Shown here: piece by piece, positions 1,563-41,124 of the stretch | How positions within the stretch are numbered: position 1 is the first letter of the stretch | Layout of the letters: each line of letters starts with the position of its first letter | From: Sporosarcina sp. E16_8 | GTDB lineage: Bacteria; Bacillota; Bacilli; Bacillales_A; Planococcaceae | Direction of reading: 5' to 3' | NCBI RefSeq assembly: GCF_017347095.1 | Contig: NZ_JADPRZ010000021.1 | Location: 1-53,809, forward strand | DNA: 53,809 bases | The notes under the pieces: model-generated | Told to the model about the DNA's origin: nothing | Seen by the model: only the letters and a program-made list of their open reading frames with translations | The model's database searches: none | Translations under genes and position numbers: made by a program

Positions 1563-1612
1563 AAAAAAAGCCCATGACGACTCGTATAGATACGAATTCC
1601 CGTCATGGGCTT
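1563..1612 (-). terminator. Leader terminator (attenuator) before the 250-aa membrane protein
   Basis: The stem arms AAGCCCATGACG and CGTCATGGGCTT are perfectly paired over 12 bp and followed in the gene direction by seven T. It lies between the promoter and the first gene, so it must be bypassed for expression. Confidence 0.85.
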
Positions 1613-1630
1613 GATAGTCAATTAGTAAGT

Positions 1631-1686
1631 CATTCTCCCGCGTGGGTGAATGTTTCAAGTGAAAAATAAAATATAATTAAATTATA
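1631..1686 (-). promoter_or_regulatory. Leader hairpin element copy 1 with promoter
   Basis: The hairpin at 1631-1652 reads in the gene direction CATTC-A-CCC-ACGC-GGG-A-GAATG. A perfect -10 box (TATAAT) lies at 1681-1686, about 22 nt upstream of the hairpin counted from the predicted start. This is the copy with the longest arms, and the CATTC/GAATG pair differs from all other copies while staying complementary. Confidence 0.75.
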
Positions 1687-1697
1687 AAACAACGGAG

Positions 1698-2762
1698 TCA
1701 AAATAGCAAGGTCTGACCAATAACGATACCTTCCTTTTTATTCGCTGTTTTAGATACAACAAGTACTTTTTCATGATTCTTACCTACCGGTTGTACCGCC
1801 TCTACAGGTAGTTCCTCTTCGGTTATACTACTCAATCGAGAATCCGATGCACAAAGATTTGCCTCTGCTACTTCTTTCTCTTGCCCTAGCAATGAAGCCT
1901 TTTGTCCCTCTGAACTAAAATCTAACAGCTCAACTTCTTCCTGCTCCTCAATGACATTCATAAAATTGAAATTCTCATGTTCTTCAAATTCTTCGAGAAC
2001 GACATCTAAATCGTACTCTTCAGTAGATTCAACTGGAATTTTAAAGTTCTCTTCTGTTTTTAATACAAGTACCTCGTCAGTTTCCTCCAACAAGTCTTCT
2101 TTAGCGGGAGTTTGAGGGAGTTCTAAAACGAAAGGTTCGTCCTCGTAATCTTCAATGCGTGCTTTAATATCACTTGACTCTGGAATATCACGCAGTTCCT
2201 GAAGTTCTCGGACTACTTTTATATAGTCTGGCCAATCAGCTAACTTGAACTCTACATCATCCAATTCTTTCGGACGAAGGTTATCTTCAAGTAACATAGC
2301 TCCACCATCTAGTAATATATCTTCTGGCCTGAAATGCAGCCCCCACTTTTTAAATTCATCAGCGTGATACAAAAGATTAGTTTCAACTACTTCGATGTGA
2401 TTTAGTATGTTCTTTTTATCAGATTGACAAGATTCCGGAAGATTTTCAAACCACTCTTCGATCATTCCCCTGATATAGGGGCAAATTAATGGTCGCTCAT
2501 CAGAAGGATAGTTAGACCAATTCGCGATCCACCATCCTTTACCACCTGTGGTTGTTTCATGGGTTTTGAATTTCTTCTCTTTTGCAAATTTAATAATCCA
2601 CGAAGGACGTGCTCCTTTAAAATATGCTCGCAGTACTTCTCCGGTTGTGGGATGAAGTTGAAGGCGAAGTGGAGACTTTTTCAGATAATGATGTTCTTCC
2701 TTATCTGACTTTGTTTCTATCCATTCAATCAATAATTGATTCTTTGTTGAATCCCATATCAT
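1698..2762 (-). CDS. Hypothetical acidic protein with C-terminal clamp-binding motif, 354 aa
   Basis: Last gene of the clamp-SNF2 operon, 13 nt after the helicase stop; AGGAGG lies 8 nt before the ATG. Residues 1-130 look like a folded domain rich in Trp (GGKGWWIANWSNYP). Residues ~200-320 are very acidic and probably disordered. The protein ends exactly at QTLLF (350-354), which fits the beta-clamp-binding pentapeptide. A disordered acidic tail ending in a clamp peptide, next to a clamp gene, suggests a protein recruited to the plasmid clamp, perhaps together with the SNF2 helicase. I cannot assign the N-terminal domain to a family. Confidence 0.75.
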   Translation of the reverse strand: MIWDSTKNQLLIEWIETKSDKEEHHYLKKSPLRLQLHPTTGEVLRAYFKGARPSWIIKFAKEKKFKTHETTTGGKGWWIANWSNYPSDERPLICPYIRGMIEEWFENLPESCQSDKKNILNHIEVVETNLLYHADEFKKWGLHFRPEDILLDGGAMLLEDNLRPKELDDVEFKLADWPDYIKVVRELQELRDIPESSDIKARIEDYEDEPFVLELPQTPAKEDLLEETDEVLVLKTEENFKIPVESTEEYDLDVVLEEFEEHENFNFMNVIEEQEEVELLDFSSEGQKASLLGQEKEVAEANLCASDSRLSSITEEELPVEAVQPVGKNHEKVLVVSKTANKKEGIVIGQTLLF

Positions 2763-2775
2763 CTAAAGTTCCTCC

Positions 2776-5052
2776 TCAAGATACATAGTCTGCTCTGCTT
2801 GTGCCACGTTTTAACATGTCAGTCGCAAATTGCTGATAGTCTATACCTGGGTCCAATTCGACATTTTCTCCAGCTTCAAATTCTTTGGATACCTGAACAA
2901 AATCAAGCTCCTGCCGGTCAATGGCAAGATCTACTCCAGACTTCTTTGACAAGACCAATGCATGTAGATTGGCATCAATAGTATCAACTGCCACAAGCCA
3001 TAGAATTTCAACAACGTCCTTCTGCCCTAAACGAACAGCTCGACTGTAACATTGCTCGATTTTCTTTGAATTAAAATCCAAATCATATAAGATAACCGCT
3101 TTTGCCTCCGTGAGCGTGTAGCTCTCAGCACCCGTCCTCATCGTCATCACAAGAATAGATAAAGGATGATCCGGATTTTGAAATTGATCCATTAAATCGT
3201 GACGGTAAGCCATTGGGACGCCGCCATGAATATAAGCAGCACGCATTCCTGGTGCAACCGTATCAAGAAGTACTCCCAGTTCTTCAGCCGTCTGCTTATG
3301 CGCTGTAAATATCAGCAACTTTTTCCCCGTGCGTGCGTATTCCTTTATCTTCTCCTTCGTCACCTGCAGCTTCACAGGTTCAACTGAAGTTGAATAATCA
3401 TAGTCGGGTTGAACCCACGGGCAAGACGCTACTTTCCGAAGTTTATCCAGCCACTGGCATACTTCAATAGTCGAGATGCGATATACATCTCCACGAGCAT
3501 CTGCAGAATCTTTCCTTGCATACTCTGAGGCATACCATTCACGAAATTCATCAAGTCGTTTATCATACAGATTCCGTTCTGCCTCTTCAAGAGCTAAATG
3601 CAATCGACGGTGTTGCGGTTCAGGTATTCTAACGTCCCTCTCCACATCTATATCTGTCTTCTTTTTACGAAACATGAATTTATCTAACAAATCCCATAAC
3701 TTTTCTTGATGCGAAACACGGGCCTCAATCGACTTAGAATCCATCACCGCTTGACGACTCGCTCCACCAAAGTATCCTCTGAAATTATCTTCACCTTTTC
3801 GTCCATACGCTTGAAAACGTTGAAGTTCAAAAGGGTTTTCAAAATGGTGAGAATCTCCATAGATCCACGTTGATGGCCAATACAAGTCATCTGCTCCATT
3901 TTCAGCAGGTGTACCAGTTAGTGCAATCCGTGTTTTTGTTTTGATGGCACGAATAGATCTTGAACGTTTAGTCGTACCATTCTTAATGAGATGCGCTTCA
4001 TCTACCGCGCAAGCATCATATGAACGGTTAAAGAATCTGTAAAGGGCTTTCTTTCGAGACTTCACGACTGTAAAGCCGCAATCACAAAATAAGTTTCCTT
4101 TACACCATTCCTGTACACACATTGGGCATTCCCCAGGAAGGTCTTTGATTGTATACCGTTCCTCTGAAGCCTTGAATGATTTATTGCAGGAGTTGCATCG
4201 TTGTTTCGCGCTGTCCCAATTAAACCCATGTACACAATCCGGACATTCCGCATGTAATTTCTCTTTAAAAAGAATTATTTCACTTGCCCAACGTTCATAA
4301 GAAACAATATGAATTCGCTTATCTGATTTAAGGTCTGTCGGATGGCGAAGTTCAATATAGTCTTTTTGAAGTCCAAGTACTTTCATTTCACGAACCCAAT
4401 CGGCAATATTCCGACTCATCGTTACTATAATGATTTTCTTGTTTGATGCATTCGAGGTTAGCCCTACAAGCGTCGTTAACGTTTTACCTAGGCCCATGTC
4501 CAACCCAAGTAATAGACGCCTTCTTGATGCGATAAGAGCAGCACCTTCAAGTTGATATTGAAAGAGGGAAGCTCCATTCGATAACGGTCCACCATAAAGT
4601 TCAATAACGCGCTGCAATGTCGCTTTATAATGCGCGGTTTCCTTAAACTCTTTTAGGGATAGACCATCCGCCCGGTATTTCCTACGTTTCTTTTCAAGTA
4701 GCGGCTGAACTGTTTCAACGTTCGCTAGATCGAGTCCCCAGCGATTAAGGGTATTATGAATGGGATGTTTCGAAAAAACGGTATCCCCTCTAGTAATGAG
4801 TGAGTGCCAATTTAACTCGCTCACCGTTTTAGTTTTTCTATTCTCACGACCATTTTCATAAGTCACGTAGTCATGTTCAAAACTTTCAATCCGATTCGCA
4901 TGCAATGCCTCGGAAGCAAGTAGCTGTTCTTCTAACGTTTCTCCAGTAAAATAGACTGCTGCTTTTGAGTAATTTGCTTTTAACATAATGAATAAGGTAC
5001 TACGAATAAATCGCAGTACCTTTTCACCTCCCTTATCTAATTTCCCACTCAA
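2776..5052 (-). CDS. SNF2-family DEAD/DEAH helicase with zinc-ribbon insertion
   Basis: Superfamily 2 ATPase of the SNF2 type that should translocate on double-stranded DNA. Motif I is DMGLGKT (185-191), motif II DEAH, motif III LTGTPAENG, and the second RecA lobe shows HGGV, DLDFN and the motif VI region RAVRLGQ. An insertion before motif II has at least ten Cys in CxxC-type pairs (CPDC, CNSC, CPMC, CDC), which should bind zinc. About 165 N-terminal residues are of unknown fold. The start is uncertain: the TTG at 5052 overlaps the clamp stop (TTGA), while a GGGAGGTG site about 15 nt inside the frame and an ATG at residue 23 suggest a later start. Co-transcribed with a sliding clamp, so probably a replication, repair or recombination remodeler. 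Confidence 0.93.
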   Translation of the reverse strand: MSGKLDKGGEKVLRFIRSTLFIMLKANYSKAAVYFTGETLEEQLLASEALHANRIESFEHDYVTYENGRENRKTKTVSELNWHSLITRGDTVFSKHPIHNTLNRWGLDLANVETVQPLLEKKRRKYRADGLSLKEFKETAHYKATLQRVIELYGGPLSNGASLFQYQLEGAALIASRRRLLLGLDMGLGKTLTTLVGLTSNASNKKIIIVTMSRNIADWVREMKVLGLQKDYIELRHPTDLKSDKRIHIVSYERWASEIILFKEKLHAECPDCVHGFNWDSAKQRCNSCNKSFKASEERYTIKDLPGECPMCVQEWCKGNLFCDCGFTVVKSRKKALYRFFNRSYDACAVDEAHLIKNGTTKRSRSIRAIKTKTRIALTGTPAENGADDLYWPSTWIYGDSHHFENPFELQRFQAYGRKGEDNFRGYFGGASRQAVMDSKSIEARVSHQEKLWDLLDKFMFRKKKTDIDVERDVRIPEPQHRRLHLALEEAERNLYDKRLDEFREWYASEYARKDSADARGDVYRISTIEVCQWLDKLRKVASCPWVQPDYDYSTSVEPVKLQVTKEKIKEYARTGKKLLIFTAHKQTAEELGVLLDTVAPGMRAAYIHGGVPMAYRHDLMDQFQNPDHPLSILVMTMRTGAESYTLTEAKAVILYDLDFNSKKIEQCYSRAVRLGQKDVVEILWLVAVDTIDANLHALVLSKKSGVDLAIDRQELDFVQVSKEFEAGENVELDPGIDYQQFATDMLKRGTSRADYVS

Positions 5053-6158
5053 ACAATAAGTACTTGCGCTATGAGTGCTTTAATATCATCGTTTCCATCA
5101 CATAAAACCGTTAGAGGAAGTCCTTTGTTTTTAAGGCAAAGTAGCACTTCATCCGTTCGGTACAGTGTCAGGCATAACTCCAAGTAATCGCTGTGTACAG
5201 CGAATTGAAACTCCTCACCTTCCACATTTGCTCCGATTTGTTCAATCGAAATACCCAGTAGTTCTACAAAAGACTTCGTTCCATCTTTTTTAAACACCAT
5301 GACCGGGTTATCGCCGCCTAAGCGTTTGATACGTCGTGTCGTATTCAAGAGCTCCATTCGGTCTACTCTCCAAACAACTTTAGCTTCCTCAATATTCGTA
5401 TACGTCTTATCAATTGGTGGAAAATCTCCAACCAATAAACGTGATACCGCTTTTGTAAAACCAGATTCGAAAATTAATAACGTCTTACCTTCGTTTATGG
5501 ACACCTTCACCTCAGAATCATTTGGAAAAATCTCCGCTAATCCCGAAATCGTTTCAGTAGGAATTGATGCAAAAAAACCATCGAACCAATTCACACCCTG
5601 CGCATTTATCGTTACCGCTCGAGAACCATTAGATGCTCGAACGAGAACCTCCCCTGTCTCTTCCTTTGAAAAGTACAAACCACGTAGAACTGGATATTTT
5701 TCAGCCCCCACGCTATTTGCAATCGCCGTAAAAGATGGTAAGGAACGTGAAAATATTTGTAACTTTCCAGGGGCCCAAAGAACAGATTCTGTTGCATCTG
5801 GAATCTCAATGGAAGGGCTCATCTCAGGGACTGTCTCCATCCTTATTTTCGATGAACGTCCCCACTTTAAATTAAGTTGTTCACCGTCTTTTTCAATCAT
5901 AATGCACTCATCTTGTGGCAGCGCACCTACTTTAACTTCAAGCTCATGAACCGTTGTCGCAAAAGCAAAAGGGGCGGAAACTTCGCACGAAATTCTTTTC
6001 TGGACTTGAAGTTCTTCTCCTACAAAGTAGAAATCGACTTCGTTATTAGAATCAACCGAAGAAATATAAACCCGATTTTCACCTAACCGTGCGCGCTTAG
6101 CCCCTTTTGTTAAACTACTTACTACTTGTTGAAGCTCTCCACCGTTAATTTTGAACAT
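5049..6158 (-). CDS. dnaN: Divergent DNA polymerase III beta subunit (sliding clamp 1)
   Basis: Ring-shaped processivity clamp. Length 369 aa is normal for DnaN, and the three-domain pattern is visible; the most recognisable stretch is RLLVGDFPPID in domain 3, the counterpart of RLIDGxYP in bacterial clamps. The C-terminus (KALIAQVLIV) differs from the usual L-P-x-R end, so it is more diverged than the second clamp at 29075-30178. First gene of its operon, under leader element copy 2. Ribosome site AAGGAGG lies inside the repeated leader sequence. It may be specialised for plasmid partners carrying Q-x-x-L-F peptides. Confidence 0.88.
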   Translation of the reverse strand: MFKINGGELQQVVSSLTKGAKRARLGENRVYISSVDSNNEVDFYFVGEELQVQKRISCEVSAPFAFATTVHELEVKVGALPQDECIMIEKDGEQLNLKWGRSSKIRMETVPEMSPSIEIPDATESVLWAPGKLQIFSRSLPSFTAIANSVGAEKYPVLRGLYFSKEETGEVLVRASNGSRAVTINAQGVNWFDGFFASIPTETISGLAEIFPNDSEVKVSINEGKTLLIFESGFTKAVSRLLVGDFPPIDKTYTNIEEAKVVWRVDRMELLNTTRRIKRLGGDNPVMVFKKDGTKSFVELLGISIEQIGANVEGEEFQFAVHSDYLELCLTLYRTDEVLLCLKNKGLPLTVLCDGNDDIKALIAQVLIV

Positions 6159-6201: not shown

Positions 6202-6272
6202 AAAAAAGCACTTTATCTAAAATGTCATTCCGCCAGAAAAAAAGACAGATGAACACATAGATAAAGTGCTTT
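6202..6272 (-). terminator. Leader terminator (attenuator) of the clamp 1 operon
   Basis: The arms AAGCACTTTATCT and AGATAAAGTGCTT pair perfectly over 13 bp and are followed by six T in the gene direction. A nested TGTC/GACA helix lies in the long loop. The sequence is almost identical to the leader at 11411-11480. Confidence 0.85.
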
Positions 6273-6282: not shown

Positions 6283-6339
6283 TCTCTCCCGCATGGGTGA
6301 GATATAAAATGAGTGCAATAAATGTACATTCATAGTATC
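6283..6339 (-). promoter_or_regulatory. Leader hairpin element copy 2 with promoter
   Basis: The hairpin at 6283-6302 reads TCTC-A-CCC-ATGC-GGG-A-GAGA in the gene direction. A probable -10 (GATACT) lies at 6334-6339, about 25 nt upstream of the hairpin from the predicted start. The loop has T instead of C at its second position. Confidence 0.7.
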
Positions 6340-6444: not shown

Positions 6445-6735
6445 TCACGCCACGGGTTTTGATAAGAAAAACTTCTCAAGCCCTAACAAGTAGTGTTGAT
6501 TGGAATAAAAGCCTCGTCCCAATTCATCCACCAATTGTTGCATTAACAAAAGTTCATTCCACGTATAGTTGGGTCTACTTGCAAGCCCCCACGGATTCTT
6601 CTGATCTCGTTTAGCCAGCCATAGTGACTTCACATAGGATTGAACCAAACGGATACTAATTAACTGCGTGGACTTGTCAGAGAACCTTTCAAGCCATGCT
6701 GTTTGTACAGACAATGTAGCTTGGGTCTGTGACAA
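6445..6735 (-). CDS. Hypothetical protein, 96 aa, at the end of the dnaX-holB operon
   Basis: Mostly helical small protein (Trp-, Gln- and Leu-rich) without a recognised motif. It starts with TTG at 6735, 28 nt after the holB stop, with only a weak AGGG site upstream. Given its place right after a short delta-prime, it could supply a missing helical collar-like segment of the clamp loader, but this is a guess from position and helix content only. No upstream ATG is available in frame. Confidence 0.6.
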   Translation of the reverse strand: MSQTQATLSVQTAWLERFSDKSTQLISIRLVQSYVKSLWLAKRDQKNPWGLASRPNYTWNELLLMQQLVDELGRGFYSNQHYLLGLEKFFLSKPVA

Positions 6736-6762
6736 TTCAAATGTAGCCCTAATTAATGCTGT

Positions 6763-7338
6763 TCATTCATCTACAACTTCTTGATGTTTTTCAAATTCTT
6801 CAATTGATGTCATAACCGTACTCAAAATCGGTAATGATTTGTGAGATGTATATCCTTTAGATCGCGCTTCTCTTTCCAATGAATTCGAAACATCTATTCG
6901 AATAGTTTGAACGCGCGATAGAATGGTTGGTAAGATTGAATCCCTTTTATCTGCAATCAAAATAGAAAGTGTATCTTGGAATGGTTCTTCTAAAAATTTC
7001 AATAGCGCATTTGATGCTTGTGGATTCATTCGGTCAGCCTGTTTAATTATAAAGACTTGTTTACTTCCTTCTACACCTTTATATGCGGCCTCTTTTTGCA
7101 ATAACCGTATCTGGTCAATTTTTATTGCTTGTCCATCAGGTTCTATTACATGAACATCCGGATGATTGTGTACATTGATCCGGCGACAAGAAGAGCATTC
7201 TCCACAAGGTTCATCGCTAATGATTTTACAAAACACTTGTTTTGTCAGCCACATAGCAAGCTCGTTCCCATCACCTTCAAATAAGTACGCATGTACAAGT
7301 CGATTATTATTTAATAGTGTTGTAAAACGTTTTTTCAC
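6763..7338 (-). CDS. holB: Short DNA polymerase III delta-prime-like protein
   Basis: AAA+ clamp-loader subunit of the HolB type. It has the family's LVHAYLFEG start, a zinc site (C37, C45, C48, C51), a degenerate P-loop (EGDGNELAM) as in delta-prime, the KQVFIIKQADRM Walker-B region, NALLKFLEEP and an SRVQ arginine-finger segment. At 191 aa it lacks most of the C-terminal collar domain of normal delta-prime (about 330 aa). GTG start with AAGGAG at 9 nt. It follows dnaX in the operon, so the plasmid makes two loader subunits; no delta (HolA) is seen, so the host may supply it. Confidence 0.88.
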   Translation of the reverse strand: MKKRFTTLLNNNRLVHAYLFEGDGNELAMWLTKQVFCKIISDEPCGECSSCRRINVHNHPDVHVIEPDGQAIKIDQIRLLQKEAAYKGVEGSKQVFIIKQADRMNPQASNALLKFLEEPFQDTLSILIADKRDSILPTILSRVQTIRIDVSNSLEREARSKGYTSHKSLPILSTVMTSIEEFEKHQEVVDE

Positions 7339-7356: not shown

Positions 7357-7390
7357 AAACTAACAAGAGGAAACCTCCTCTCGTTAGTTT
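7357..7390 (+). terminator. Hairpin between dnaX and holB
   Basis: A 14-bp stem (AAACTAAC..GTTAGTTT with AGAGG/CCTCT) overlaps the dnaX stop. The T-run lies on the plus side (ATTTTTT), so it would terminate only plus-strand transcripts. For the operon it is more likely an mRNA-processing or stabilising hairpin. Confidence 0.4.
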
Positions 7391-9459
7391 ATTTTTTCTC
7401 GTAACGCGGCCACAATACGACCCCAACTATCTTCCGTTAGGAGGATCAATTGCGATGACTGATAAACTTCGTCAAAGATCGATTCAACGATTGAGCGATT
7501 TGCCACTCTTTTCATTAAATTCACTTTCGCGTTTTCACAATGACTCATGATGACATGTGTCTCGCTAACCGCTTTCAGTGAAAATTCGCGGAATAGGACT
7601 TGCGTTGATATTTTGGTTTGTTTTAACAAATCATCGATTTCAGTAAATTTTTCAGAATAAGTAGCCCTTAATTCTTTTGTACAAGAATCAAGCATAGATA
7701 AAATCTTTTCCTCATCTGCAGAAAGTGGTTTATCGGTACGTGTTACTACCGGTGCACGTTCCTCCATCGATGGTTCTTCTTCAGGAGCGGGAGGTATCTG
7801 ACTTTCGTCGATAACATGAACCCAATTCTCTTTATTTTCTATTGCTTTTTCGATTATGTGTGAAAACTCAGGAACTCCATCAGATTCCATTACAGAAGCT
7901 TCATTCCGAATATTATTCAAAACTACCGCTGCTGGTAACTCGATTGAGTGATTGTCGTCCGGCGCATTAAATGTAGGGACACTATTCATATCACCAAACA
8001 AGTCTTCCATTGTAAGATCCTGTAGGAATTCTTTTTTTGTTTCCACCTTTTCCGCATTCTCAGTTTTCATCTTTGGGGAAGCTGTTTCAGAAAACTCACT
8101 TGTCTGTATTACAGGCGGCTCATAGGGATCCTCAACGGGTGCATACCTAGGAGCTTCATCTTGCTCTAAAGGCGGAGTTGGTTCCGGAGTAATCGTAATT
8201 TCATTCGGTGTTGTAACCGGTACCTCTTGTTGAGTATCTTGAGAAACCGAAATCGCTTCCTCCACTACTTCAATAACCGGTAATGATTCAACCGAAGCAG
8301 CCACTTGTTCAAGCCTTACTCCAGATTTCAACAACTCTACTTCCTGTTTAAGCTGCATGACTTCTGCACGTAAGTCCTCATTCTGATCATTCACCATTTC
8401 TACAATCGCCATTTCAACAAGCAAATGTACGTCATGATGAAATTTCATTTTCCCCATCGTCTCTTGCAAAATGTCTAAATGACGGAAAATGAGAACCGAA
8501 TTAACCGATTGACGTACTTGATGGAATCCAGGGTCAGTTACACCTTTTTTGAGTGTTGCTTTTTCCCCCAGCTTTTCATAAAGAAGAATATCACGATAAT
8601 AATTCATCATTTCCTCAATGAAAAACCTCGGTTCTTGTCCACTTTGGAAACAGGAATTGAAATGTTCAAGTGATCCTTCTACATCCTTCGCACCAATGAA
8701 TTCAATTAATTTTCCTATTTTCCGAGTATCAACGGCTCCCGTTAGTTCAATTACATTCTTCAACGACACTTTTCCAGGTGTATGTGAAATGGCTTGGTCC
8801 AGTAGACTTAGCGCATCACGCATTCCTCCTGCAGCAATTTGTGCTATTAGTTGTAATGCCGCCATCTCTACGTCTGCCTTCTCTGCTTGGATGATTGTCT
8901 CCATACGAGAAACTATGTCATCCTGTGCGATTCGTCTAAAATCATAGCGTTGACAACGTGATAGAATTGTCAACGGGATCTTATGCGGCTCGGTAGTAGC
9001 AAGGATAAATATTGCATGTGCAGGTGGCTCTTCAAGTGTCTTAAGTAATGCATTGAAAGCTTGATTAGTGAGCATATGCACTTCGTCGATAATGTACACT
9101 TTGTACTTACCGAATACGGGTGTATATACTACTTTCTCTCGCAAATCCCTGATTTCATCGACACCATTGTTACTAGCAGCGTCCATCTCTAGTATGTCCG
9201 GGTTAGAATCTTTACACGAATCGCATACCCCACAAGGGTCAAAACCATTAGGTTCTAAGCAATTTAATGCTTTGGCTAATATTTTTGCAGAAGAAGTTTT
9301 ACCTGTTCCGCGAGGACCTGTAAATAAATATGCGTGAGAAACTTTCCCTAAACGTAATGCGTTTAATAGAGTTGTTTTGATAGTTTCCTGACCAATCAAC
9401 GAATCAAATCCTGTTGGGCGGTATTTACGATACAATGCTAGATGTTGCGTCATTGTCAT
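7384..9459 (-). CDS. dnaX: DNA polymerase III gamma/tau subunit
   Basis: Clamp-loader ATPase, 691 aa, of full tau-like length. Walker A GPRGTGKT (48-55), zinc site C67-C76-C79-C82, Walker B YIIDEVHML, sensor LATTEPHKIP and SRC motif (LSRCQRYDF) are all intact. After the collar domain comes a long Pro/Glu-rich linker (~400-540) and then a C-terminal domain that may bind polymerase. The start is uncertain between the ATG codons at 9459 and 9453; GGAG lies 4 or 10 nt upstream. It overlaps the E1-like gene by about 35 nt, so translation is coupled. No programmed-frameshift A-tract is obvious. With two clamps and holB it gives the plasmid a private clamp-loading capacity. Confidence 0.95.
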   Translation of the reverse strand: MTMTQHLALYRKYRPTGFDSLIGQETIKTTLLNALRLGKVSHAYLFTGPRGTGKTSSAKILAKALNCLEPNGFDPCGVCDSCKDSNPDILEMDAASNNGVDEIRDLREKVVYTPVFGKYKVYIIDEVHMLTNQAFNALLKTLEEPPAHAIFILATTEPHKIPLTILSRCQRYDFRRIAQDDIVSRMETIIQAEKADVEMAALQLIAQIAAGGMRDALSLLDQAISHTPGKVSLKNVIELTGAVDTRKIGKLIEFIGAKDVEGSLEHFNSCFQSGQEPRFFIEEMMNYYRDILLYEKLGEKATLKKGVTDPGFHQVRQSVNSVLIFRHLDILQETMGKMKFHHDVHLLVEMAIVEMVNDQNEDLRAEVMQLKQEVELLKSGVRLEQVAASVESLPVIEVVEEAISVSQDTQQEVPVTTPNEITITPEPTPPLEQDEAPRYAPVEDPYEPPVIQTSEFSETASPKMKTENAEKVETKKEFLQDLTMEDLFGDMNSVPTFNAPDDNHSIELPAAVVLNNIRNEASVMESDGVPEFSHIIEKAIENKENWVHVIDESQIPPAPEEEPSMEERAPVVTRTDKPLSADEEKILSMLDSCTKELRATYSEKFTEIDDLLKQTKISTQVLFREFSLKAVSETHVIMSHCENAKVNLMKRVANRSIVESIFDEVYQSSQLILLTEDSWGRIVAALREKIN

Positions 9460-11376: not shown

Positions 11377-11410
11377 TCTCCTTAAAAAAGTTTTATTTTA
11401 TTTAAAGCAC

Positions 11411-11480
11411 AAAAAAGCACTTTATCTAAAATGTCATTCCGCCAGAAAAAAGACAGATGAACACAAAGATAAAGTGCTTT
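11411..11480 (-). terminator. Leader terminator (attenuator) of the JAMM-E1-dnaX operon
   Basis: The 13-bp arms AAGCACTTTATCT and AGATAAAGTGCTT are followed by six T. It is nearly identical to the leader at 6202-6272. Confidence 0.85.
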
Positions 11481-11489
11481 TAATTAACT

Positions 11490-11544
11490 TCTCTCCCGCG
11501 TGGGTGAGATAAGAAATAAGTGCAATAAATATAACCACAGTATA
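11490..11544 (-). promoter_or_regulatory. Leader hairpin element copy 3 with promoter
   Basis: The hairpin at 11490-11509 reads TCTC-A-CCC-ACGC-GGG-A-GAGA. An extended -10 (TGGTATACT) has its hexamer at 11539-11544, about 23 nt before the hairpin from the predicted start, with a TTTGCA-like -35 at 17 nt. Confidence 0.8.
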
Positions 11545-11642
11545 CCATAAACACCTCTTTCTGCAAAGAGCAAATGGTACAGTGTAGAACAATGAACATA
11601 CCAGCACTATAGAGCAAATGGCGGCATGTTCATCATTGGTTA

Positions 11643-11966
11643 TTAGATTGTGACAGCAAGTTCATCAGTAGAAAACGTCTTCGTCAACTCCGCTATGTCA
11701 TTTAAACTTAAATCTAATGCTTTAAATAACTTTTCATATGTTTCTAGACCTAAGTTATCCACTCCACCTTCAGCCCGTGAAATAGTTTTTACTCCGACTT
11801 TAGCTAGGTCCGCTAGTTCGGGTTGGGTATACCCCTTTTTCATGCGTTCTGATAATACAATGTGTCCATAGACAGCCGATAAGCCATATAACGCTTCACG
11901 GAAATGAGGATGCGCTTTTAATATTTCTGTTGTGTCTAATAGATTTCTCGCTTTTTTAATGTTAAT
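11643..11966 (-). CDS. higA: XRE-family antitoxin-like regulator (HigA-like) with non-canonical start
   Basis: The helix-turn-helix reads MKKGYTQPELADLAKVGVKTIS followed by RAEGG in two parts of one domain. The first ATG is at 11843, but this would cut off the first helix: the frame stays open and protein-like for about 40 codons upstream, with no ATG, GTG or TTG. GAGGGG lies just before two in-frame ATT codons (11966 and 11960) and a CTG (11969), so I propose ATT initiation as in infC, overlapping the toxin stop. The product would bind the operator at 12464-12504 and neutralise the upstream RelE/HigB-like protein. The start is inferred, the domain is clear. Confidence 0.65.
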   Translation of the reverse strand: MNIKKARNLLDTTEILKAHPHFREALYGLSAVYGHIVLSERMKKGYTQPELADLAKVGVKTISRAEGGVDNLGLETYEKLFKALDLSLNDIAELTKTFSTDELAVTI

Positions 11967-12456: not shown

Positions 12457-12463
12457 ACCATAT

Positions 12464-14524: not shown

Positions 14525-14564
14525 AATAAAAAAGCAGAAGTTCAATGTAAATGAACTCCTGCTT
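14525..14564 (-). terminator. Intrinsic terminator inside the exonuclease-E2 gene string
   Basis: The stem AGCAGGAGTTCA with TGAACTTCTGCT is followed by TTTTTT in the gene direction, and the stem overlaps the stop of the upstream small gene. No clear promoter lies between it and the next gene, so the downstream genes may need read-through. Confidence 0.85.
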
Positions 14565-16018: not shown

Positions 16019-16087
16019 AAAAAAAGCCCAAACATAAGGTTTCGTTGAACACACAAAATCGCATGTCTAGAAACTCACATTTGAGCT
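16019..16087 (-). terminator. Leader terminator (attenuator) of the exonuclease operon
   Basis: A 14-bp stem including G-U pairs (AGCTCAAATGTGAG with CTTATGTTTGGGCT) is followed by seven T in the gene direction. Confidence 0.8.
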
Positions 16088-16119: not shown

Positions 16120-16173
16120 CTTCTCCCGCATGGGTGAAGTAATAGAAATAACAAATATAATAACATGATTATA
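16120..16173 (-). promoter_or_regulatory. Leader hairpin element copy 4 with promoter
   Basis: The hairpin at 16120-16139 reads CTTC-A-CCC-ATGC-GGG-A-GAAG. A perfect TATAAT lies at 16168-16173, about 22 nt before the hairpin from the predicted start. Confidence 0.8.
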
Positions 16174-18339: not shown

Positions 18340-18420
18340 TTGTCGATTATTATTGAATATGATATGATTTCATCAATATATCCCACATTACCATTTTTTA
18401 CTTCACCCACGCGGGAGAAG
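18340..18420 (+). promoter_or_regulatory. Leader hairpin element copy 5 with promoter (plus strand)
   Basis: TTGTCG (18340-18345), a 17-nt spacer and TATGAT (18363-18368) make a good promoter. The hairpin CTTC-A-CCC-ACGC-GGG-A-GAAG lies at 18401-18420, about 26 nt after the predicted start. It is the only plus-strand copy and is inverted with its gene, showing that orientation follows transcription. Confidence 0.85.
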
Positions 18421-18440
18421 AGATTGATTTTTTTATAACA

Positions 18441-18497
18441 AGCATTCTATTGGATGAATGAGCGAAAGCCATTATTTCCTACGGAATGCTTTTTTTG
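18441..18497 (+). terminator. Leader terminator (attenuator) of the 317-aa membrane protein
   Basis: AGCATTC pairs with GAATGCT and is followed by TTTTTTT; an inner AATGAGC-GAAA-GCCATT hairpin fills the loop. Confidence 0.8.
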
Positions 18498-25024: not shown

Positions 25025-25064
25025 AAAAAAAGAGTAGCTGCATTGAATATGCAACCACTCTTTT
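25025..25064 (-). terminator. Terminator between the 90-aa gene and the cytosine methyltransferase
   Basis: The stem AAGAGTGGTTGCAT with ATGCAGCTACTCTT is followed by TTTTTTTAT in the minus direction. It has no hairpin element upstream, so it ends the 90-aa gene or attenuates the methyltransferase. Confidence 0.75.
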
Positions 25065-26630: not shown

Positions 26631-26711
26631 AAAAAATACGCCTATTCATTAACAAACAAAAGATGAACCCTCCCTAAAGAAAAGGTCATTTGTTCGCAAA
26701 TGAATAAGCGC
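26631..26711 (-). terminator. Leader terminator (attenuator) of the 63-aa gene and radC
   Basis: GCGCTTATTCATT pairs with AATGAATAGGCGT, with a second inner helix (AACAAATGACC/GGTTCATCTTTTGTT), followed by ATTTTTT. Confidence 0.75.
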
Positions 26712-26735
26712 ATGATGGTACACATTGGTGAAAAC

Positions 26736-26785
26736 TCTCTCCCGCGTGGGTGAGATCAAAAATAAATAAAGTATACTGTATTATA
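26736..26785 (-). promoter_or_regulatory. Leader hairpin element copy 6 with promoter
   Basis: The hairpin at 26736-26755 reads TCTC-A-CCC-ACGC-GGG-A-GAGA. A perfect extended -10 (TGATATAAT) has its hexamer at 26780-26785, about 18-20 nt upstream from the predicted start. Confidence 0.8.
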
Positions 26786-32086: not shown

Positions 32087-32164
32087 TTCCTCCCGCGTGG
32101 GTGGAATAATAAAAAGGTTAAAAAGGTATATGTACAGTATACGGTAATGAATATAATTTGTCAT
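32087..32164 (-). promoter_or_regulatory. Leader hairpin element copy 7 with promoter
   Basis: The hairpin at 32087-32106 reads TTCC-A-CCC-ACGC-GGG-A-GGAA; the arms differ from all other copies yet still pair. ATGACA-17-TATACT (hexamer 32136-32141) is a good promoter about 23 nt upstream from the predicted start. Confidence 0.85.
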
Positions 32165-35600: not shown

Positions 35601-35632
35601 TAAAACCAACACTGACTAGCAGCGTTGGTTCA
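35601..35632 (-). terminator. Terminator of the NYN-MoxR-VWA operon
   Basis: AACCAACGCTG and TCAGTGTTGGTT form a long stem with a short T-run (TTTTAT) in the minus direction. Confidence 0.65.
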
Positions 35633-37515: not shown

Positions 37516-37516
37516 C

Positions 37517-38944
37517 TCAGTACCCACCTTTCTGGTATTCATCCTCTTCAGCAGAAATCGGGAAGTCGCCCCATGCCGAATCCCGGATCATATGTCGAAG
37601 CGCCATATATTCATCTAGGTCTTCGATTTTGTTCAATACATAATCCTCGATGATTTCATGTTTTGTTTCTGCAGTGATGCCGTTTTCAAGGAAGTAGCGG
37701 GCGGCGTCTATATATCCACGGATGGTAGATGCTGCATGGCCCTGACTCTCTTCCTGAATTAGTTGGTCCACAGCCTTTTTAACCTTTTCTAGGAACAAAA
37801 GTCCGTGGCGATCATGTAGACCCGTCTTGTTCTGAATCATTTCCACGAATTCTAATGTAGATGGTAAACGAAGAACGGCAAAACGATCTTTAAAAGCATC
37901 GTTTAAAGCGCGAACTCCTGCATAACCAGCACCTACGTTCATGGAACCTATCATCAAGAATTGGGAATGGCGTTTAATCGCACCGACAGGGCTTGATAGA
38001 ACTCGGTTCTCGTCTAGTAGTGAGTGGTAGACAGAAGTAACATCTCCCATCAACATATTGACTTCAGCCATGTTCGCAAGACCGCCATTTTTAACGGTTG
38101 AGGCAAATTGACTCAAATCAAATGTGCTTTCTCCATCCCGAAAAGCAGGTTCCCCGACAATTGATTCTTTTGTTTCGTCTTTGTTCCCCACGTGAATGGT
38201 TTGCGGCAATCCAAGCACCCATCCGATAGTAGCGATAAGCGTGTCTTTACCTGTACCTTTATCTCCAATTAATATCAGGTCTTTGCCAAGTAGGACGTGG
38301 CGTAATGCACGTGCAAGCATAGGACCTGAATACGGGTAGTGAGGTTGTTCCGGTTTAATCATCATTGGTAAGCAAGAAACAGTGGCATGAATAGCACCAC
38401 GACGTTCTAATACCCGATGTATTAAAGCCGGTGGCAATCCTTCCTTGTCCAAATAGGTTTGAACAGTCCCCCATCCTACATTACAGTCCCGAATTTCAGT
38501 CGTGGTTGTAGGTGCCGCCGCGTCTCCTGGTTCAACAGGGGCGGCGACAGGAGGCGCGTCTACTTCTTCAATAGGTGCGAGCAATCCGAATTGAGAATTC
38601 ACATTCGTAAAGTCAATATCATTTAATTGTTCATGGATGGTTTCGATTTCCTGTATAGAACCTTTTGTCGAAAACTTAACAAGCGTCTCGCCAATCGTGT
38701 CTATGATGGAACTAAAGACGTTTAAGTGCTTACAAGAAACACCCTTCTCATTGGCTTCACAGTAATGAATCGCTTTGAACTCATCGTTTTGGAAGAGAAT
38801 GTAACCAGAAATGTCAAGATCCTTAAAGACGACCCGGTAATTATTGTTAACGGAATCGACTTCGATTGATGAAACATGTTGATGTAGATTTGCTTTCATA
38901 TCCTGGATAGCCATTTTGTTTAAAGTTATTTTTGCAATTTTCAT
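37517..38944 (-). CDS. MoxR-type AAA+ ATPase (CobS-like) with SWIM-like N-terminal zinc motif
   Basis: 475 aa from ATG 38944 (AAGGAGAG of a recurrent element at 8 nt). Walker A GDKGTGKDT (227-235), then NMAEVNMLMGDVTSVYHSLLD (Walker B region with Asn in place of the usual Asp-Glu pair in part), sensor GSMNVGAG and an arginine finger region DRFAVLRL. The N-terminal ~90 residues hold IHYC...VSCKHL, the C-x-n-C-x-H half of a SWIM zinc finger, then an acidic Pro/Ala linker. It should power the VWA partner. I do not know the substrate. Confidence 0.85.
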   Translation of the reverse strand: MKIAKITLNKMAIQDMKANLHQHVSSIEVDSVNNNYRVVFKDLDISGYILFQNDEFKAIHYCEANEKGVSCKHLNVFSSIIDTIGETLVKFSTKGSIQEIETIHEQLNDIDFTNVNSQFGLLAPIEEVDAPPVAAPVEPGDAAAPTTTTEIRDCNVGWGTVQTYLDKEGLPPALIHRVLERRGAIHATVSCLPMMIKPEQPHYPYSGPMLARALRHVLLGKDLILIGDKGTGKDTLIATIGWVLGLPQTIHVGNKDETKESIVGEPAFRDGESTFDLSQFASTVKNGGLANMAEVNMLMGDVTSVYHSLLDENRVLSSPVGAIKRHSQFLMIGSMNVGAGYAGVRALNDAFKDRFAVLRLPSTLEFVEMIQNKTGLHDRHGLLFLEKVKKAVDQLIQEESQGHAASTIRGYIDAARYFLENGITAETKHEIIEDYVLNKIEDLDEYMALRHMIRDSAWGDFPISAEEDEYQKGGY

Positions 38945-39036
38945 GTGTAATTCTCTCCTTAAAAAAAGTTTTTGTGGTCGAGCCAATTAAAAAGAAAGAC
39001 AGTCCTCCGAAGAGTGCCGCCTTTCCAATGAAACGG

Positions 39037-39909
39037 TTATACCGCTTGATTATTTTCGATTACGGGTACCTCTTTTGATAGCCGTAATCGATTGTCATTA
39101 TTGTTGAGCCATCCTTTCACTCGCAAGACAGCACGATTAGGTAAAGACCTCGCAAAATCTTGATGCAAAATGGGAATGACCATTTCAACGGTATCTCGCG
39201 ACTCCAACATGACTGGAACCGTCGAACTGTTGTCTTGATTGAAAAGAATGTCACCTACAATTGCTACCCGGAAAGAGATTGGTTTATTGCTAGAGGTAGA
39301 GGGTTGGAAATGCTCATTGGCAGCAATTGAATCTGGATGAATCGATTCAGGAATTGCATTTTGTTCTTCAGCAGAAGAGAGCATACCCGTTCCAACTAAT
39401 CCATAGCCCATGAAACCAAGAGCCCGTCCGATAGCAGAAGTCTGTGCATTCGCACATGGATTGGAAGCATCGACGCCGCCACCAAAACCAACTTCGACAA
39501 TTCCTGTAGATGTTCCAAACACTTCTGATTCAATAGTGACTGATACTAGTAGTCGATCAGCGATTGATTGGAAAACTGGCGGATGAATATCTAGTCGTTT
39601 ACCTAGCTTTACGTGTTCATCTCTTGCCATTCGAACACGTCCGTCAACAGTCATATATGGTTTTTCAATAGAAACATATGTCCCGTTTTGTGTGGAAAAC
39701 ATGCCAAGCTTATCTGCTTCGGCTGTAATTTTATATTGTACTTTGTTAATCTTCACATTCTGAGGCAATAAAACCAAAAAGTCATGATACTCTTCAGGAA
39801 TACGCTTTTTTGCCTGGATGATCTCTTGTTGCGTATGAAAAATATCATCCTTACCTTTTTTCAATACGTAATGAGGTAGATTTGCTGTAGGCTTATTGTT
39901 GGTTGTCAT
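39037..39909 (-). CDS. Two-domain protein: annealing-like N-terminal domain plus OB-like domain
   Basis: 290 aa. Around residue 150 it shows NPCANAQTSAIGRALGFMGYG, a T-x-AIGRAL-x-x-x-G-Y-G pattern that recurs in phage single-strand-annealing (Rad52/ERF-like) proteins. The C-terminal ~85 residues (ISFRVAIVGDILFNQDNSS...VLRVKGWLNN) look like an OB fold. A recombination mediator or ssDNA-binding role is plausible, matching the operon with NYN, MoxR and VWA. Start ATG overlaps the NYN stop (ATGA); GGAG at 11 nt. The family call is tentative. Confidence 0.6.
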   Translation of the reverse strand: MTTNNKPTANLPHYVLKKGKDDIFHTQQEIIQAKKRIPEEYHDFLVLLPQNVKINKVQYKITAEADKLGMFSTQNGTYVSIEKPYMTVDGRVRMARDEHVKLGKRLDIHPPVFQSIADRLLVSVTIESEVFGTSTGIVEVGFGGGVDASNPCANAQTSAIGRALGFMGYGLVGTGMLSSAEEQNAIPESIHPDSIAANEHFQPSTSSNKPISFRVAIVGDILFNQDNSSTVPVMLESRDTVEMVIPILHQDFARSLPNRAVLRVKGWLNNNDNRLRLSKEVPVIENNQAV

Positions 39910-40502
39910 ATGGCAACACTCTCCTTAAAAAAGTTTGTATTAGTTCGGTCTTGCCACAAAATGTGTTGTGGTTCGATCCAACTTATAACATCTTCTAACC
40001 GAATAACGACATCGGCTATCTCCGTAATCATCGCAGCAGGAATGTTCTTTGATACGACGACATGAACTCGTGCTCCATACATTTGCGCGCGTTTAATAGC
40101 GGGAACTAAATCGCCATCTCCGGAACACACGATAATGTCTTGGAACCCATCCTTCGCAAATATGGCCAAATCCATAGCGAGCATAACGTCTACTCCCTTT
40201 TCAATGAATTTGTTACGACCATGATCGACAACAGTGAATCCTTCATGTACTAGGATGTCATCCCGTCCTAAGGCACGAAAGAATCCCGCACGCTTTGTAT
40301 GACGTTCTGGATGAGTTAGCACAGGCACGTTCGCACCATAGAAGTGTTTCTCAGATGGATAACCAATGTACCTTTGTAGTGACTCGTAAAAAGCATTCCA
40401 AGGATTGATACCTTGTACGCCTATGCGGTGCAACTGACCCATAATGTTCATTTCGTCTACTAAAATAGCAGAACTCGTCATGATTTGATGTTGATTTCTC
40501 AT
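39906..40502 (-). CDS. NYN/LabA-type PIN-fold nuclease-like protein
   Basis: 198 aa from ATG 40502 (GGGAGGG at 9 nt; overlaps the upstream stop). The NYN/LabA-like fold is visible: ILVDEMNIMGQ (first Asp), GFFRALG, KGVDVMLAMDLAIFA and IIVCSGDGDLVPAIKRAQMYG, with the conserved acidic residues of a metal-dependent nuclease. LabA-like proteins often act on RNA. First position is shared with the 141-aa protein in an operon that also has an annealing-like protein. The last codons before its stop form the ribosome site of the next gene. Confidence 0.85.
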   Translation of the reverse strand: MRNQHQIMTSSAILVDEMNIMGQLHRIGVQGINPWNAFYESLQRYIGYPSEKHFYGANVPVLTHPERHTKRAGFFRALGRDDILVHEGFTVVDHGRNKFIEKGVDVMLAMDLAIFAKDGFQDIIVCSGDGDLVPAIKRAQMYGARVHVVVSKNIPAAMITEIADVVIRLEDVISWIEPQHILWQDRTNTNFFKESVAI

Positions 40503-40924
40503 GAAATAATTCCCTCCCATAACGTAGTTTGATAATCTTCTTGATAAACCGGAACAAAGTCGAGGACGTGCATAGGCACACCATGACCTGTTCGCTTTTC
40601 TATCAAAAGACACCACTCGTTTTTTCCGTATGGGATTCCCGCGATCTCAATCTGTTTATGCGGATACACATACCACTCACCTTCACGAATATAACCGTAA
40701 GAAGAAAGATCGGGCAGTGAACCGGCGAAAAACAGTTTGATACTTCTACACGTGAATCCATTGCGCTTAATTTGAGTGTATAGATGTTTAATTTCGGAAA
40801 ACTCTACATCTGACTCACACACCAATAGGCGCCAGTGTTCTGATTCTTGTATTCTTAAAAAACCTGGCAAATCATCTTTAAAAATTGCCGTCTTGCTGCA
40901 ATGCCAGACGGTTTGAATTCGCAT
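40499..40924 (-). CDS. Hypothetical protein, 141 aa, first gene of the NYN operon
   Basis: Start ATG 40924 (AGAGGA about 9 nt upstream). The product has alternating strands and helices (WRLLVCESDVEFSEIKHLYT, SIKLFFAGSLPD, EWYVYPHKQIEIAGIPYG). No known motif. It overlaps the NYN gene by 4 nt (ATGA), and leader element copy 8 precedes it. Confidence 0.75.
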   Translation of the reverse strand: MRIQTVWHCSKTAIFKDDLPGFLRIQESEHWRLLVCESDVEFSEIKHLYTQIKRNGFTCRSIKLFFAGSLPDLSSYGYIREGEWYVYPHKQIEIAGIPYGKNEWCLLIEKRTGHGVPMHVLDFVPVYQEDYQTTLWEGIIS

Positions 40925-40964
40925 TACGAACACATCCTCTCTCAATCTATCAATAAATGAACAC

Positions 40965-41050
40965 AAAAAAATACGCTCATTTGCAAAGGATTGAAAACAT
41001 GAAAACTCTCAAAAAAGAGTTTTTAGTCAATCGCATGCAAATAAGCGTAT
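40965..41050 (-). terminator. Leader terminator (attenuator) of the NYN-MoxR-VWA operon
   Basis: ATACGCTTATTTGCA pairs with TGCAAATGAGCGTAT over 15 bp (one G-U), followed by TTTTTTT; a nested AAACTC/GAGTTT hairpin fills the loop. The longest leader stem in the set. Confidence 0.85.
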
Positions 41051-41069
41051 AGTAACCGGTTAATGTACG

Positions 41070-41124
41070 TCTCTCCCGCGTGGGTGAGAATAGAGAAAAA
41101 GTAAAATAATATAAGGTTAGCATA
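41070..41124 (-). promoter_or_regulatory. Leader hairpin element copy 8 with promoter
   Basis: The hairpin at 41070-41089 reads TCTC-A-CCC-ACGC-GGG-A-GAGA. An extended -10 (TGATATGCT) has its hexamer at 41119-41124, about 23 nt upstream from the predicted start. Confidence 0.8.

What the first reader, a model, noticed from the sequence alone, without database searches (positions are those of the whole stretch)
1563..41124. Eight copies of a covarying leader hairpin, each followed by an intrinsic terminator: a plasmid-wide RNA-controlled regulon
Seen: at 1631-1652, 6283-6302, 11490-11509, 16120-16139, 18401-18420, 26736-26755, 32087-32106 and 41070-41089 the transcript-sense sequence is N4-A-CCC-AYGC-GGG-A-N4'. 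The inner part is invariant, while the outer arms change in pairs (CATTC/GAATG, TCTC/GAGA, CTTC/GAAG, TTCC/GGAA), i.e. compensatory changes. All eight lie 18-26 nt after a predicted start and upstream of a strong terminator hairpin that precedes the first gene. The orientation always follows transcription, including the one plus-strand copy. The core ACGC is not symmetric, so a dimer-binding DNA operator does not explain the fixed orientation. The controlled units include both clamps, SNF2, dnaX/holB, JAMM/E1, exonuclease, primase/SSB and MoxR/VWA. Inference: a structured RNA that controls terminator read-through, either by local attenuation or by modifying RNA polymerase (put-, LoaP- or conAn-like precedents).
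Basis: partly seen in the sequence, partly recalled or inferred. Interest (0 to 1): 0.93.

Follow-up and report, generated by a model that had tools for sequence, protein, structure and literature searches.

The report
Plasmid-wide antitermination RNA hairpin family
The leaders of eight predicted operons on a likely plasmid carry the same small hairpin sequence followed by a long predicted transcription terminator, a design also found on large plasmids of several other Bacillales genera, and the hairpin is predicted to let RNA polymerase pass that stop so that replication and transfer genes would be switched on together.

Summary
Confirmed and extended. All eight hairpins (P1) are present in the stated orientation. 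Each lies 24-32 nt after a -10-like box (29 nt in five of eight) and ahead of a predicted 45-80 nt intrinsic terminator (T) that precedes the first gene. Relatives on plasmids of Peribacillus, Cytobacillus, Lysinibacillus, Alkalihalophilus and Paenibacillus have different stems but mostly the same tetraloop, A-N-G-C. In 38 distinct hairpins all 7 stem pairs change on both sides (86 double-changed cells, 20 in shuffles).

A test blind to loop sequence took 145 long U-tract terminators. Of the 73 with any tetraloop hairpin upstream, 55 have an ANGC loop; controls gave 0 of 13 (downstream) and 1 of 125 (shuffles). P1-led terminators also share a small hairpin (P2) in the terminator's 5' arm that excludes the terminator. 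A few conserved terminators lie inside P1-led units.

I read P1 as a likely loading signal for antitermination, probably processive. The trans factor is unknown. No NusG-family gene lies on nine complete plasmids, Rfam gave no match to P1, and nine literature searches listed nothing describing it. The main rival is a local P2/terminator switch. No RNA has been measured.

The parts
1631..1652 (-). P1 hairpin CATTC-A-CCC-ACGC-GGG-A-GAATG
   Evidence: counterpart in pSP10-266k at 250986-250997
1568..1612 (-). predicted leader terminator T (45 nt, dG -25.9); -10-like box TATAAT at 1686-1681
6283..6302 (-). P1 hairpin TCTC-A-CCC-ATGC-GGG-A-GAGA
6205..6272 (-). predicted leader terminator T (68 nt, dG -30.0) ahead of the clamp-like gene 5049-6158 and SNF2 2776-5052; -10-like box TACTAT at 6337-6332
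11490..11509 (-). P1 hairpin TCTC-A-CCC-ACGC-GGG-A-GAGA
11413..11481 (-). predicted leader terminator T (69 nt, dG -30.1) ahead of JAB-like 10330-11376, ThiF 9425-10342, DnaX 7384-9459; -10-like box TATACT at 11544-11539
16120..16139 (-). P1 hairpin CTTC-A-CCC-ATGC-GGG-A-GAAG
   Evidence: P. asahii has a P1-led leader ahead of a similar first gene (by eye)
16025..16087 (-). predicted leader terminator T (63 nt, dG -23.6) ahead of 15725-15997 and the 5'-3' exonuclease 14817-15716; -10-like box TATAAT at 16173-16168
14532..14564 (-). intrinsic terminator between genes downstream of the 16135 leader, in a 54-nt gap; conserved in pSP10-266k
18401..18420 (+). P1 hairpin CTTC-A-CCC-ACGC-GGG-A-GAAG (the plus-strand copy)
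18440..18491 (+). predicted leader terminator T (52 nt, dG -18.6) ahead of ORF 18486-19484 (likely true start near 18531); -10-like box TATGAT at 18363-18368
26736..26755 (-). P1 hairpin TCTC-A-CCC-ACGC-GGG-A-GAGA
26636..26713 (-). predicted leader terminator T (78 nt, dG -36.3); -10-like box TATAAT at 26785-26780
25030..25062 (-). intrinsic terminator (14-bp stem) between genes downstream of the 26751 leader, in a 94-nt gap; conserved in pSP10-266k
32087..32106 (-). P1 hairpin TTCC-A-CCC-ACGC-GGG-A-GGAA
32002..32070 (-). predicted leader terminator T (69 nt, dG -34.4) ahead of primase 30573-31952, SSB-like 30246-30560, beta clamp 29075-30178; -10-like box TATACT at 32141-32136
   Evidence: primase and SSB by annotation of homologs; primase leaders of other Bacillales carry P1 and T
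41070..41089 (-). P1 hairpin TCTC-A-CCC-ACGC-GGG-A-GAGA
40971..41050 (-). predicted leader terminator T (80 nt, dG -33.4) ahead of the unit with NYN protein 39906-40616 and AAA_5 protein 37517-38986; -10-like box TATGCT at 41124-41119
38993..39026 (-). intrinsic terminator in a 50-nt gap downstream of the 41085 leader; hairpin kept with base changes in pSP10-266k
35604..35630 (-). further terminator downstream of the 41085 leader (may be the end of that unit), conserved in pSP10-266k
45723..46637 (-). protein with an S1 RNA-binding domain, related to several domains of ribosomal protein S1; found on all nine relatives W01-W09; candidate trans factor (untested)

Best explanation
Each of the eight predicted operons starts with a covarying hairpin (P1, ANGC loop) and then a long predicted terminator, and P1 is likely the loading signal by which a trans-acting RNA-binding factor would make RNA polymerase read through that terminator and probably the internal ones.

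Steps shown by sequence: P1, predicted terminator and gene come in this order and orientation in all eight window copies. P1 is held as a structure, not as a sequence. The loop is nearly fixed. P1-led terminators have a 5' arm that can fold on itself (P2).

Steps inferred: the promoter; the terminator stops most transcripts by default; P1 emerges early, about 20 nt from the start, and is bound through its loop; the bound complex overrides T, possibly helped by P2 as a pause or antiterminator hairpin; all P1-led units of a plasmid are switched together; the factor is plasmid-encoded or host-encoded and is not a NusG paralog carried by the plasmid.
For: RNA structure: 38 distinct hairpins, 7 of 7 pairs with changes on both sides, 86 double-changed cells against 20.0 shuffled, 0/500; slid structures 4-20; 22 hairpins, 8 of 8 pairs, 41 against 9.9, 0/500. 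The plain count of pairs with a double change does not separate (102 of 500 shuffles reach 7).

Link to terminators without choosing the loop. Of 145 long terminators, 73 have a tetraloop hairpin of at least 7 bp upstream; 55 loops are A.GC and 67 A.(GC/GA/AC). Downstream windows: 13 hairpins, 0 such loops. Shuffles: 125 hairpins, 1 and 10. On the antisense strand 61 hairpins, 0 such loops, mostly the same hairpins read backwards; 55 A.GC against 0 GC.T, 53 distinct hairpins; 21 of 24 replicons or contigs have at least one A.(GC/GA/AC).

Geometry: -10-like box to P1 is 29 nt in 5 of 8; loop to terminator is 24-26 nt in 35 of 67.

Strong default stop: mean dG -31.3 for 67 P1-led terminators.

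Internal terminators in gaps of 50-94 nt without P1, conserved in pSP10-266k: 14532-14564, 25030-25062, 38993-39026. PMC8955417 (passages) calls terminators inside an operon a good indication of a processive system.

Analogy: LoaP needs one small leader hairpin and reads through leader and internal terminators (PMC12691694 passages).
Against: No factor is identified, and no read-through has been measured. The P2/T pair gives a local switch that needs no processive complex. Internal terminators are few: of 34 minus-strand gaps checked in the window, 10 had a terminator-like hairpin by a loose rule, some of them leader regions. Of five of these compared with pSP10-266k, four are conserved and one (gap 26124-26286) is not. 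Promoters inside the upstream genes are not excluded. conAn's operon has more than 20.

72 of 145 long terminators had no tetraloop hairpin upstream by my definition, so long terminators are not exclusive to P1. The stricter model R2 found nothing in four of eight plasmids (W05-W08). The looser scan found P1 in stretches of W06 and W08 but not W05 or W07, although a copy with loop AAGA precedes the W05 primase. Four plasmids with a distant S1 protein had long terminators but no ANGC hairpin, so the S1 protein does not predict P1. Hairpins were selected for being paired, which inflates the percentage paired, though not the variety of pairs.
Confidence: 0.55

Rival explanations
1. Local attenuation switch: P1 and P2 are a two-hairpin antiterminator. 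A factor (or P1 itself) stabilises P2, the local hairpin in the 5' arm of T, so T cannot form; the effect is limited to that leader, as in ANTAR or BglG/SacY systems.
For: P1-led terminators have a 5' arm that folds on itself more than expected (mean z -1.40, Wilcoxon p 5e-12, n 67); long terminators without a tetraloop hairpin upstream do not (z -0.36, p 0.11, n 72); the two groups differ in arm energy (p 7e-6), and in the 67 the 5' arm exceeds the 3' arm (p 1e-9) (the 6 terminators with other loops were dropped). Loop-to-terminator spacing peaks at 24-26 nt. ANTAR leaders have two small hairpins with the second overlapping the terminator (PMC3369931 passages).
Against: P2 loops are not conserved, so P2 is not a second copy of the recognised hairpin. 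Loop-to-terminator distance ranges from 20 to 44 nt in the seven window copies. Conserved internal terminators would still need another explanation. The leaders are related, so p values overstate independence, and the comparison group still holds some P1 copies that the script missed.
Confidence: 0.27
2. P1 is a target for repression: binding of a plasmid product to P1 promotes termination (feedback or copy-number control), and the default state is read-through because P2 folds first.
For: The units include replication genes, for which feedback is common (established knowledge). P2 can fold before T is complete (inferred from its position).
Against: T is far more stable than P2 (mean dG -31.3 against -3.9), so default read-through is unlikely. 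Conserved internal terminators would reduce expression further.
Confidence: 0.1
3. P1 is a 5' mRNA stability or processing element and T is only an insulator against upstream transcription.
For: P1 sits near the predicted 5' end of the transcript, where stem-loops can protect mRNA (recalled).
Against: Stability hairpins need no fixed loop. ANGC is mostly kept while all stem pairs change, and P1 goes with a special class of terminator.
Confidence: 0.05
4. P1 is a DNA operator for a dimeric protein.
For: It is an inverted repeat close to predicted promoters.
Against: Arms change in matched pairs at every position counted, the loop is asymmetric with orientation 55 to 0, and an A.A internal mismatch is kept in 23 of 38 hairpins.
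Confidence: 0.02

Closest known systems
LoaP and the dfn/mln leader hairpin (Bacillus velezensis)
   Same: A small leader hairpin with a conserved tetraloop ahead of a leader terminator, in Bacillota; read-through of leader and internal terminators (PMC12691694, passages).
   Different: The dfn loop is UNCG, here mostly ANGC. No NusG-family gene on any of nine complete plasmids. Here up to eleven copies per plasmid, on replication and transfer genes rather than two antibiotic clusters.
ANTAR two-hairpin antiterminators (EutV, NasR)
   Same: An upstream recognition hairpin plus a second hairpin that overlaps and excludes the terminator; conserved loop residues (PMC3369931, passages).
   Different: ANTAR loops are hexanucleotides with important A1 and G4; here P1 has a tetraloop ANGC and P2 has no conserved loop. 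No ANTAR protein found in the host genome or five plasmids (but no control genome rang either).
conAn of pLS20 (ConAn1 protein plus conAn2 RNA)
   Same: A Gram-positive conjugative plasmid using an RNA component for processive antitermination (PMC8955417, passages).
   Different: One system at the start of a conjugation operon, with its own protein; here many short leaders per plasmid. No ANGC hairpin ahead of the 4 long terminators found in the first 50 kb of pLS20; two ANGC hairpins elsewhere in that stretch by a loose scan.
lambda N/nut boxB, HK022 put, EAR
   Same: A promoter-proximal RNA element or factor that modifies RNA polymerase against terminators (N, put and EAR named in PMC8955417 passages; details recalled).
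   Different: Different size and sequence (recalled); not compared by calculation here.
Bacillus-plasmid RNA (RF01691)
   Same: A structured RNA of Bacillus plasmids.
   Different: Thought to act in copy-number control (PMC10531132, passage). No match of this family in the sequences searched.

Membership tests
LoaP-dependent leader | UNCG-type tetraloop hairpin | tested here: not met
   Of the 73 tetraloops listed, 55 are A.GC, 12 A.GA or A.AC, and none is UNCG
LoaP-dependent leader | NusG paralog encoded with the regulon | tested here: not met
   PF02357 absent from W01-W03 and W04-W09; the control rang in 10 of 14 genomes. A host-encoded paralog is not excluded: G000 has a second NusG-like ORF on contig C22
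ANTAR antiterminator RNA | two hairpins with hexanucleotide loops, A at 1 and G at 4 | tested here: not met
   P1 is a tetraloop; P2 loops vary in length and sequence (by eye)
ANTAR antiterminator RNA | second hairpin overlaps the terminator | tested here: met
   P2 lies in the 5' arm of T
ANTAR antiterminator RNA | ANTAR-domain protein in the organism | tested here: inconclusive
   0 of 6, but no control genome rang
Processive antitermination system | terminators within the controlled operon | tested here: met
   three in gaps of 50-94 nt, conserved in pSP10-266k; that the genes form one unit is inferred, and promoters inside upstream genes are not excluded
Processive antitermination system | read-through of distant terminators depends on the element | not testable with these tools
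   needs reporter or in vitro transcription
Any Rfam family | covariance-model match | tested here: not met
   Searches (window, E up to 5; L086, L100, L092, E up to 2): no hit on a P1; one hit far below its gathering score (mir-890, E 0.67) lies over a terminator. Other loci were not searched
Structured RNA (against DNA operator) | compensatory changes and fixed orientation | tested here: met

The most novel reading that the evidence does not exclude
A previously undescribed antitermination system of Bacillales megaplasmids: its own RNA signal (the ANGC hairpin, repeated in front of many core operons) and its own plasmid-encoded RNA-binding factor, perhaps the S1-domain protein related to ribosomal protein bS1, act together as one plasmid-wide switch that opens the replication and transfer operons by overriding leader and internal terminators.
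Probability: 0.3. Interest if true: 0.92.

Novelty: new variant of a known kind. Interest (0 to 1): 0.8.

Why it matters
[quoted passage not shown] This would be a further one, and it would control many separate operons of one replicon with one short RNA signal. It gives a sequence handle on how very large plasmids of environmental Bacillales coordinate replication, DNA metabolism and transfer. The signal is short and modular, so it can be tested directly in laboratory Bacillus reporters and used to fish out its binding partner.

Tried and rejected
DNA operator: rejected by covariation and orientation.

Known Rfam family: none in the window and three loci searched. LoaP on the plasmid: none on nine. 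ANTAR: none, but uninformative control.

Base-pairing between the constant P1 and the terminators (classic mutual exclusion): rejected by inspection, because T sequences differ between leaders while P1 does not.

Chromosomal or phage spread: the covariance search of 261 order-level genomes gave 4 genomes, of which G020 looks like a coding-sequence false hit. The search of 398 class-level genomes gave 18 with E <= 0.001. I read the context of 17 loci covering the 16 genomes other than G000 and G100; by eye none had the promoter-terminator context. They look like coding sequence, antisense 16S rRNA, and a site ahead of a cggR-like gene (names recalled, not searched). Only 19-30 candidates per genome were scored, so absence is weak. 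The phage collection gave no DNA match to an 8-kb piece and one weak primase match; viral contigs was not searched.

S1 protein as factor: present on 9 of 9 relatives W01-W09, but four plasmids with a distant S1 protein had no ANGC hairpin in the roughly 41-kb stretches read. The structure model of the window's protein alone was useless (mean pLDDT 33.3).

A first automatic terminator search picked wrong, too distant hairpins for some leaders; a second still did so for some; later scans replaced them. A per-leader pairing script stopped with an error after 45 of 50 leaders; the last five were read by eye.
Full report
OBSERVATION. The eight stated hairpins exist. With one mismatch allowed the window still has exactly eight hits, with 0.11 expected. 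In the genome behind the window (G000, 138 contigs) the exact pattern occurs 11 times, 8 on the window's contig C21 and 3 on C11. The other 10 hits carry one mismatch and lie on other contigs; the control pattern gave 12 hits. A covariance model built from 17 hairpins (R1) also finds only these 11 in G000 at E up to 1 (150 of 922 candidates scored). The closest named plasmid, pSP10-266k of Sporosarcina psychrophila (NZ_CP146247.1, 91% identical over 85% of an 8-kb query), has 11 copies (9 exact, 2 with loop AAGC). By flanking sequence, compared by eye, they are the counterparts of the same 11 leaders. That the window is part of a plasmid rests on this likeness.

ANATOMY. Every window copy has the order -10-like box, P1, predicted terminator, gene. 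The distance from the -10-like box to the hairpin is 29 nt in five of eight and 24-32 in all. Promoters are predictions: the consensus scans found no excess over shuffles and list the promoter of 4 of the 7 copies in the range scanned. The leader terminators (T) are 45-80 nt long and mostly paired, with dG from -18.6 to -36.3. The simple terminator scan (loop 3-8) does not see most of them. The long-terminator scan found ten in the window, eight of them exactly those behind P1; the other two are 27665 (plus strand) and 49656 (minus strand).

IT IS A FAMILY, AND IT IS RNA. Peribacillus asahii plasmid NZ_CP085715.1 has copies with inner stems CTC/GAG, TCC/GGA and CCC/GGG, and quite different outer arms. 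Cytobacillus solani NZ_CP085713.1, with no hit by the exact pattern, has two with CCT/AGG. Lysinibacillus fusiformis pHJ.T1 and Alkalihalophilus pBpOF4-01 have ACC/GGT and TCC/GGA. Leaders of the homologous primase gene in other Bacillales carry the same arrangement, in part read by eye and with other internal loops in Paenibacillus. The loop stays A-N-G-C, sometimes A-N-G-A or A-N-A-C. In 22 hairpins all 8 pairs counted have changes on both sides, 41 such cells against 9.9 in shuffles, 0 of 500 as high; the outermost pair is unpaired in 11 of 22 rows. In 38 distinct hairpins with a 1x1 internal loop or a continuous stem, taken from the later scan (29 of its 67 hairpins were left out as other types or repeats), 7 of 7 pairs vary on both sides, 86 cells against 20.0, covariation score 0.948 against 0.291, and 4-20 cells for slid structures; the bare number of pairs with a double change is reached by 102 of 500 shuffles. 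These 38 were selected for pairing; the variety of pair types is the informative part.

LINK TO TERMINATORS. I collected long U-tract terminators (45-95 nt, dG at most -22) from 32 loci; pSP10-266k was left out as a near duplicate. I then looked for the best tetraloop hairpin in the 78 nt upstream without regard to loop sequence. Of 145 terminators, 73 have one; 55 loops are A.GC and 67 are A.(GC/GA/AC). The same search downstream (144 windows) gives 13 hairpins, none with these loops. On the antisense strand it gives 61, none, mostly the same hairpins read backwards. In 2900 shuffles it gives 125, of which 1 and 10. The sense windows hold no reversed loop (GC.T), and 53 of the 55 hairpins are distinct. 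The terminators come from 24 replicons or contigs, and 21 have at least one A.(GC/GA/AC) hairpin; the three without are the stretches of Rossellomorea, Paenibacillus sp. 37 and P. oralis. The plus-strand window copy is not in this count, because its terminator (-18.6) misses the threshold. Loop start to terminator is 24-26 nt in 35 of 67.

P2. In P1-led terminators the first 26 nt of the 5' arm fold on themselves (typical form CACTC-CTT-GAGTG), which excludes T: mean z -1.40, Wilcoxon p 5e-12, n 67. In 72 long terminators without an upstream tetraloop hairpin the z is -0.36 (p 0.11), and the two groups differ in energy (p 7e-6); 6 terminators with other loops were dropped. These sequences are related, so p values are optimistic, and the group of 72 still holds some P1 copies that the script missed.

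INTERNAL TERMINATORS. Downstream of P1 leaders, on the same strand, there are intrinsic terminators in gaps between genes: 14532-14564 (54-nt gap), 25030-25062 (94 nt), 38993-39026 (50 nt), and one at 35604-35630 that may end its unit. Of 34 minus-strand gaps checked, 10 had a terminator-like hairpin by a loose rule, some of them leader regions. I compared five with pSP10-266k: these four are conserved, the one in gap 26124-26286 is not. PMC8955417 (passages read) states that terminators within an operon are a good indication of a processive antitermination system.

MECHANISM. T is strong and stands between the predicted promoter and core plasmid genes, so something must let polymerase pass. 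P1 is the conserved upstream signal. Its fixed loop with freely changing stems points to recognition by a factor or by polymerase. I therefore commit to antitermination loaded at P1 (0.55), probably processive because of the internal terminators. A purely local P2/T switch is the main rival (0.27). What is shown is sequence anatomy and covariation; transcription start, termination, read-through, binding and co-regulation are inferred.

TRANS FACTOR. No NusG-family gene on nine complete plasmids. A protein with an S1 RNA-binding domain (Pfam), whose family profile aligns with ribosomal protein S1 over positions 50-272, is on all nine (the window's protein and seven of the nine were aligned, W05 and W06 not). 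It is a candidate only. Four plasmids with more distant S1 proteins have long terminators but no ANGC hairpin in the roughly 41-kb stretches read.

DISTRIBUTION. Among 261 order-level genomes the hits with the right context are G000, G100 and G143; among 398 class-level genomes, G000 and G100. The searches scored 19-30 candidates per genome with strict filters, so these are lower bounds; within them the element looks like an accessory trait. G100's copy precedes what looks like a broken gene. The stricter model R2 found nothing on W05-W08, of which W06 and W08 have copies by the looser scan.

NOVELTY. Rfam 15 has no match to P1 in the window or in three further loci. Nine literature searches listed no title or abstract start that describes this hairpin; the library holds only open-licence papers, so this is not proof. 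Passages were read from PMC12691694, PMC8955417, PMC3369931, PMC2864571 and PMC10531132. It works like the leader hairpins of LoaP or ANTAR systems but fails defining features of both, so I file it as a new variant of leader-RNA (anti)termination.

Noticed in passing
window 49608-49656 (-); L024 34253, L073 13011, L074 3543/10339/13979/17265, L075 2326, L071 8441: A second class of leader terminators without P1, starting GAAGCACC (or GGAGCACC), often directly ahead of the conjugative ATPase or the S1-domain protein gene. It may be another regulated leader family.
   Followed up: partly
L130 and L131 (Cytobacillus pseudoceanisediminis, Virgibacillus plasmids): Long leader terminators with a P2-like CCTTTGGG arm; in L130 a recurring upstream GTTAGCRG stretch instead of the ANGC hairpin. 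Possibly a diverged version of the system.
   Followed up: no
window 6445-7338 (-): pSP10-266k has one 894-nt delta' (holB) gene annotated at the matching place; the window shows two ORFs (6763-7338 and 6445-6735), so the gene looks interrupted or the assembly has an error.
   Followed up: no
G000 contig C22, L032 4260-5189 (-): A 309-aa ORF with a weak but above-cut-off NusG domain match (26.5 bits) beside a normal-looking NusG on C7.
   Followed up: no
window 9425-13618 (-): A ThiF (E1-like), a JAB-like (below cut-off) and a prokaryotic E2 family D (just below cut-off) protein lie in P1-led units; P. asahii has an annotated E2 family D protein in a similar place.
   Followed up: no
L060 (G100:C3): A P1-led leader ahead of what looks like a broken relative of the first gene after the 11505 leader, on a 200-kb contig of another genus; possibly a plasmid relic.
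   Followed up: no
L086 247-289: A PreQ1 riboswitch match above the gathering score on the Bacillus sp. FJAT-29937 contig.
   Followed up: no
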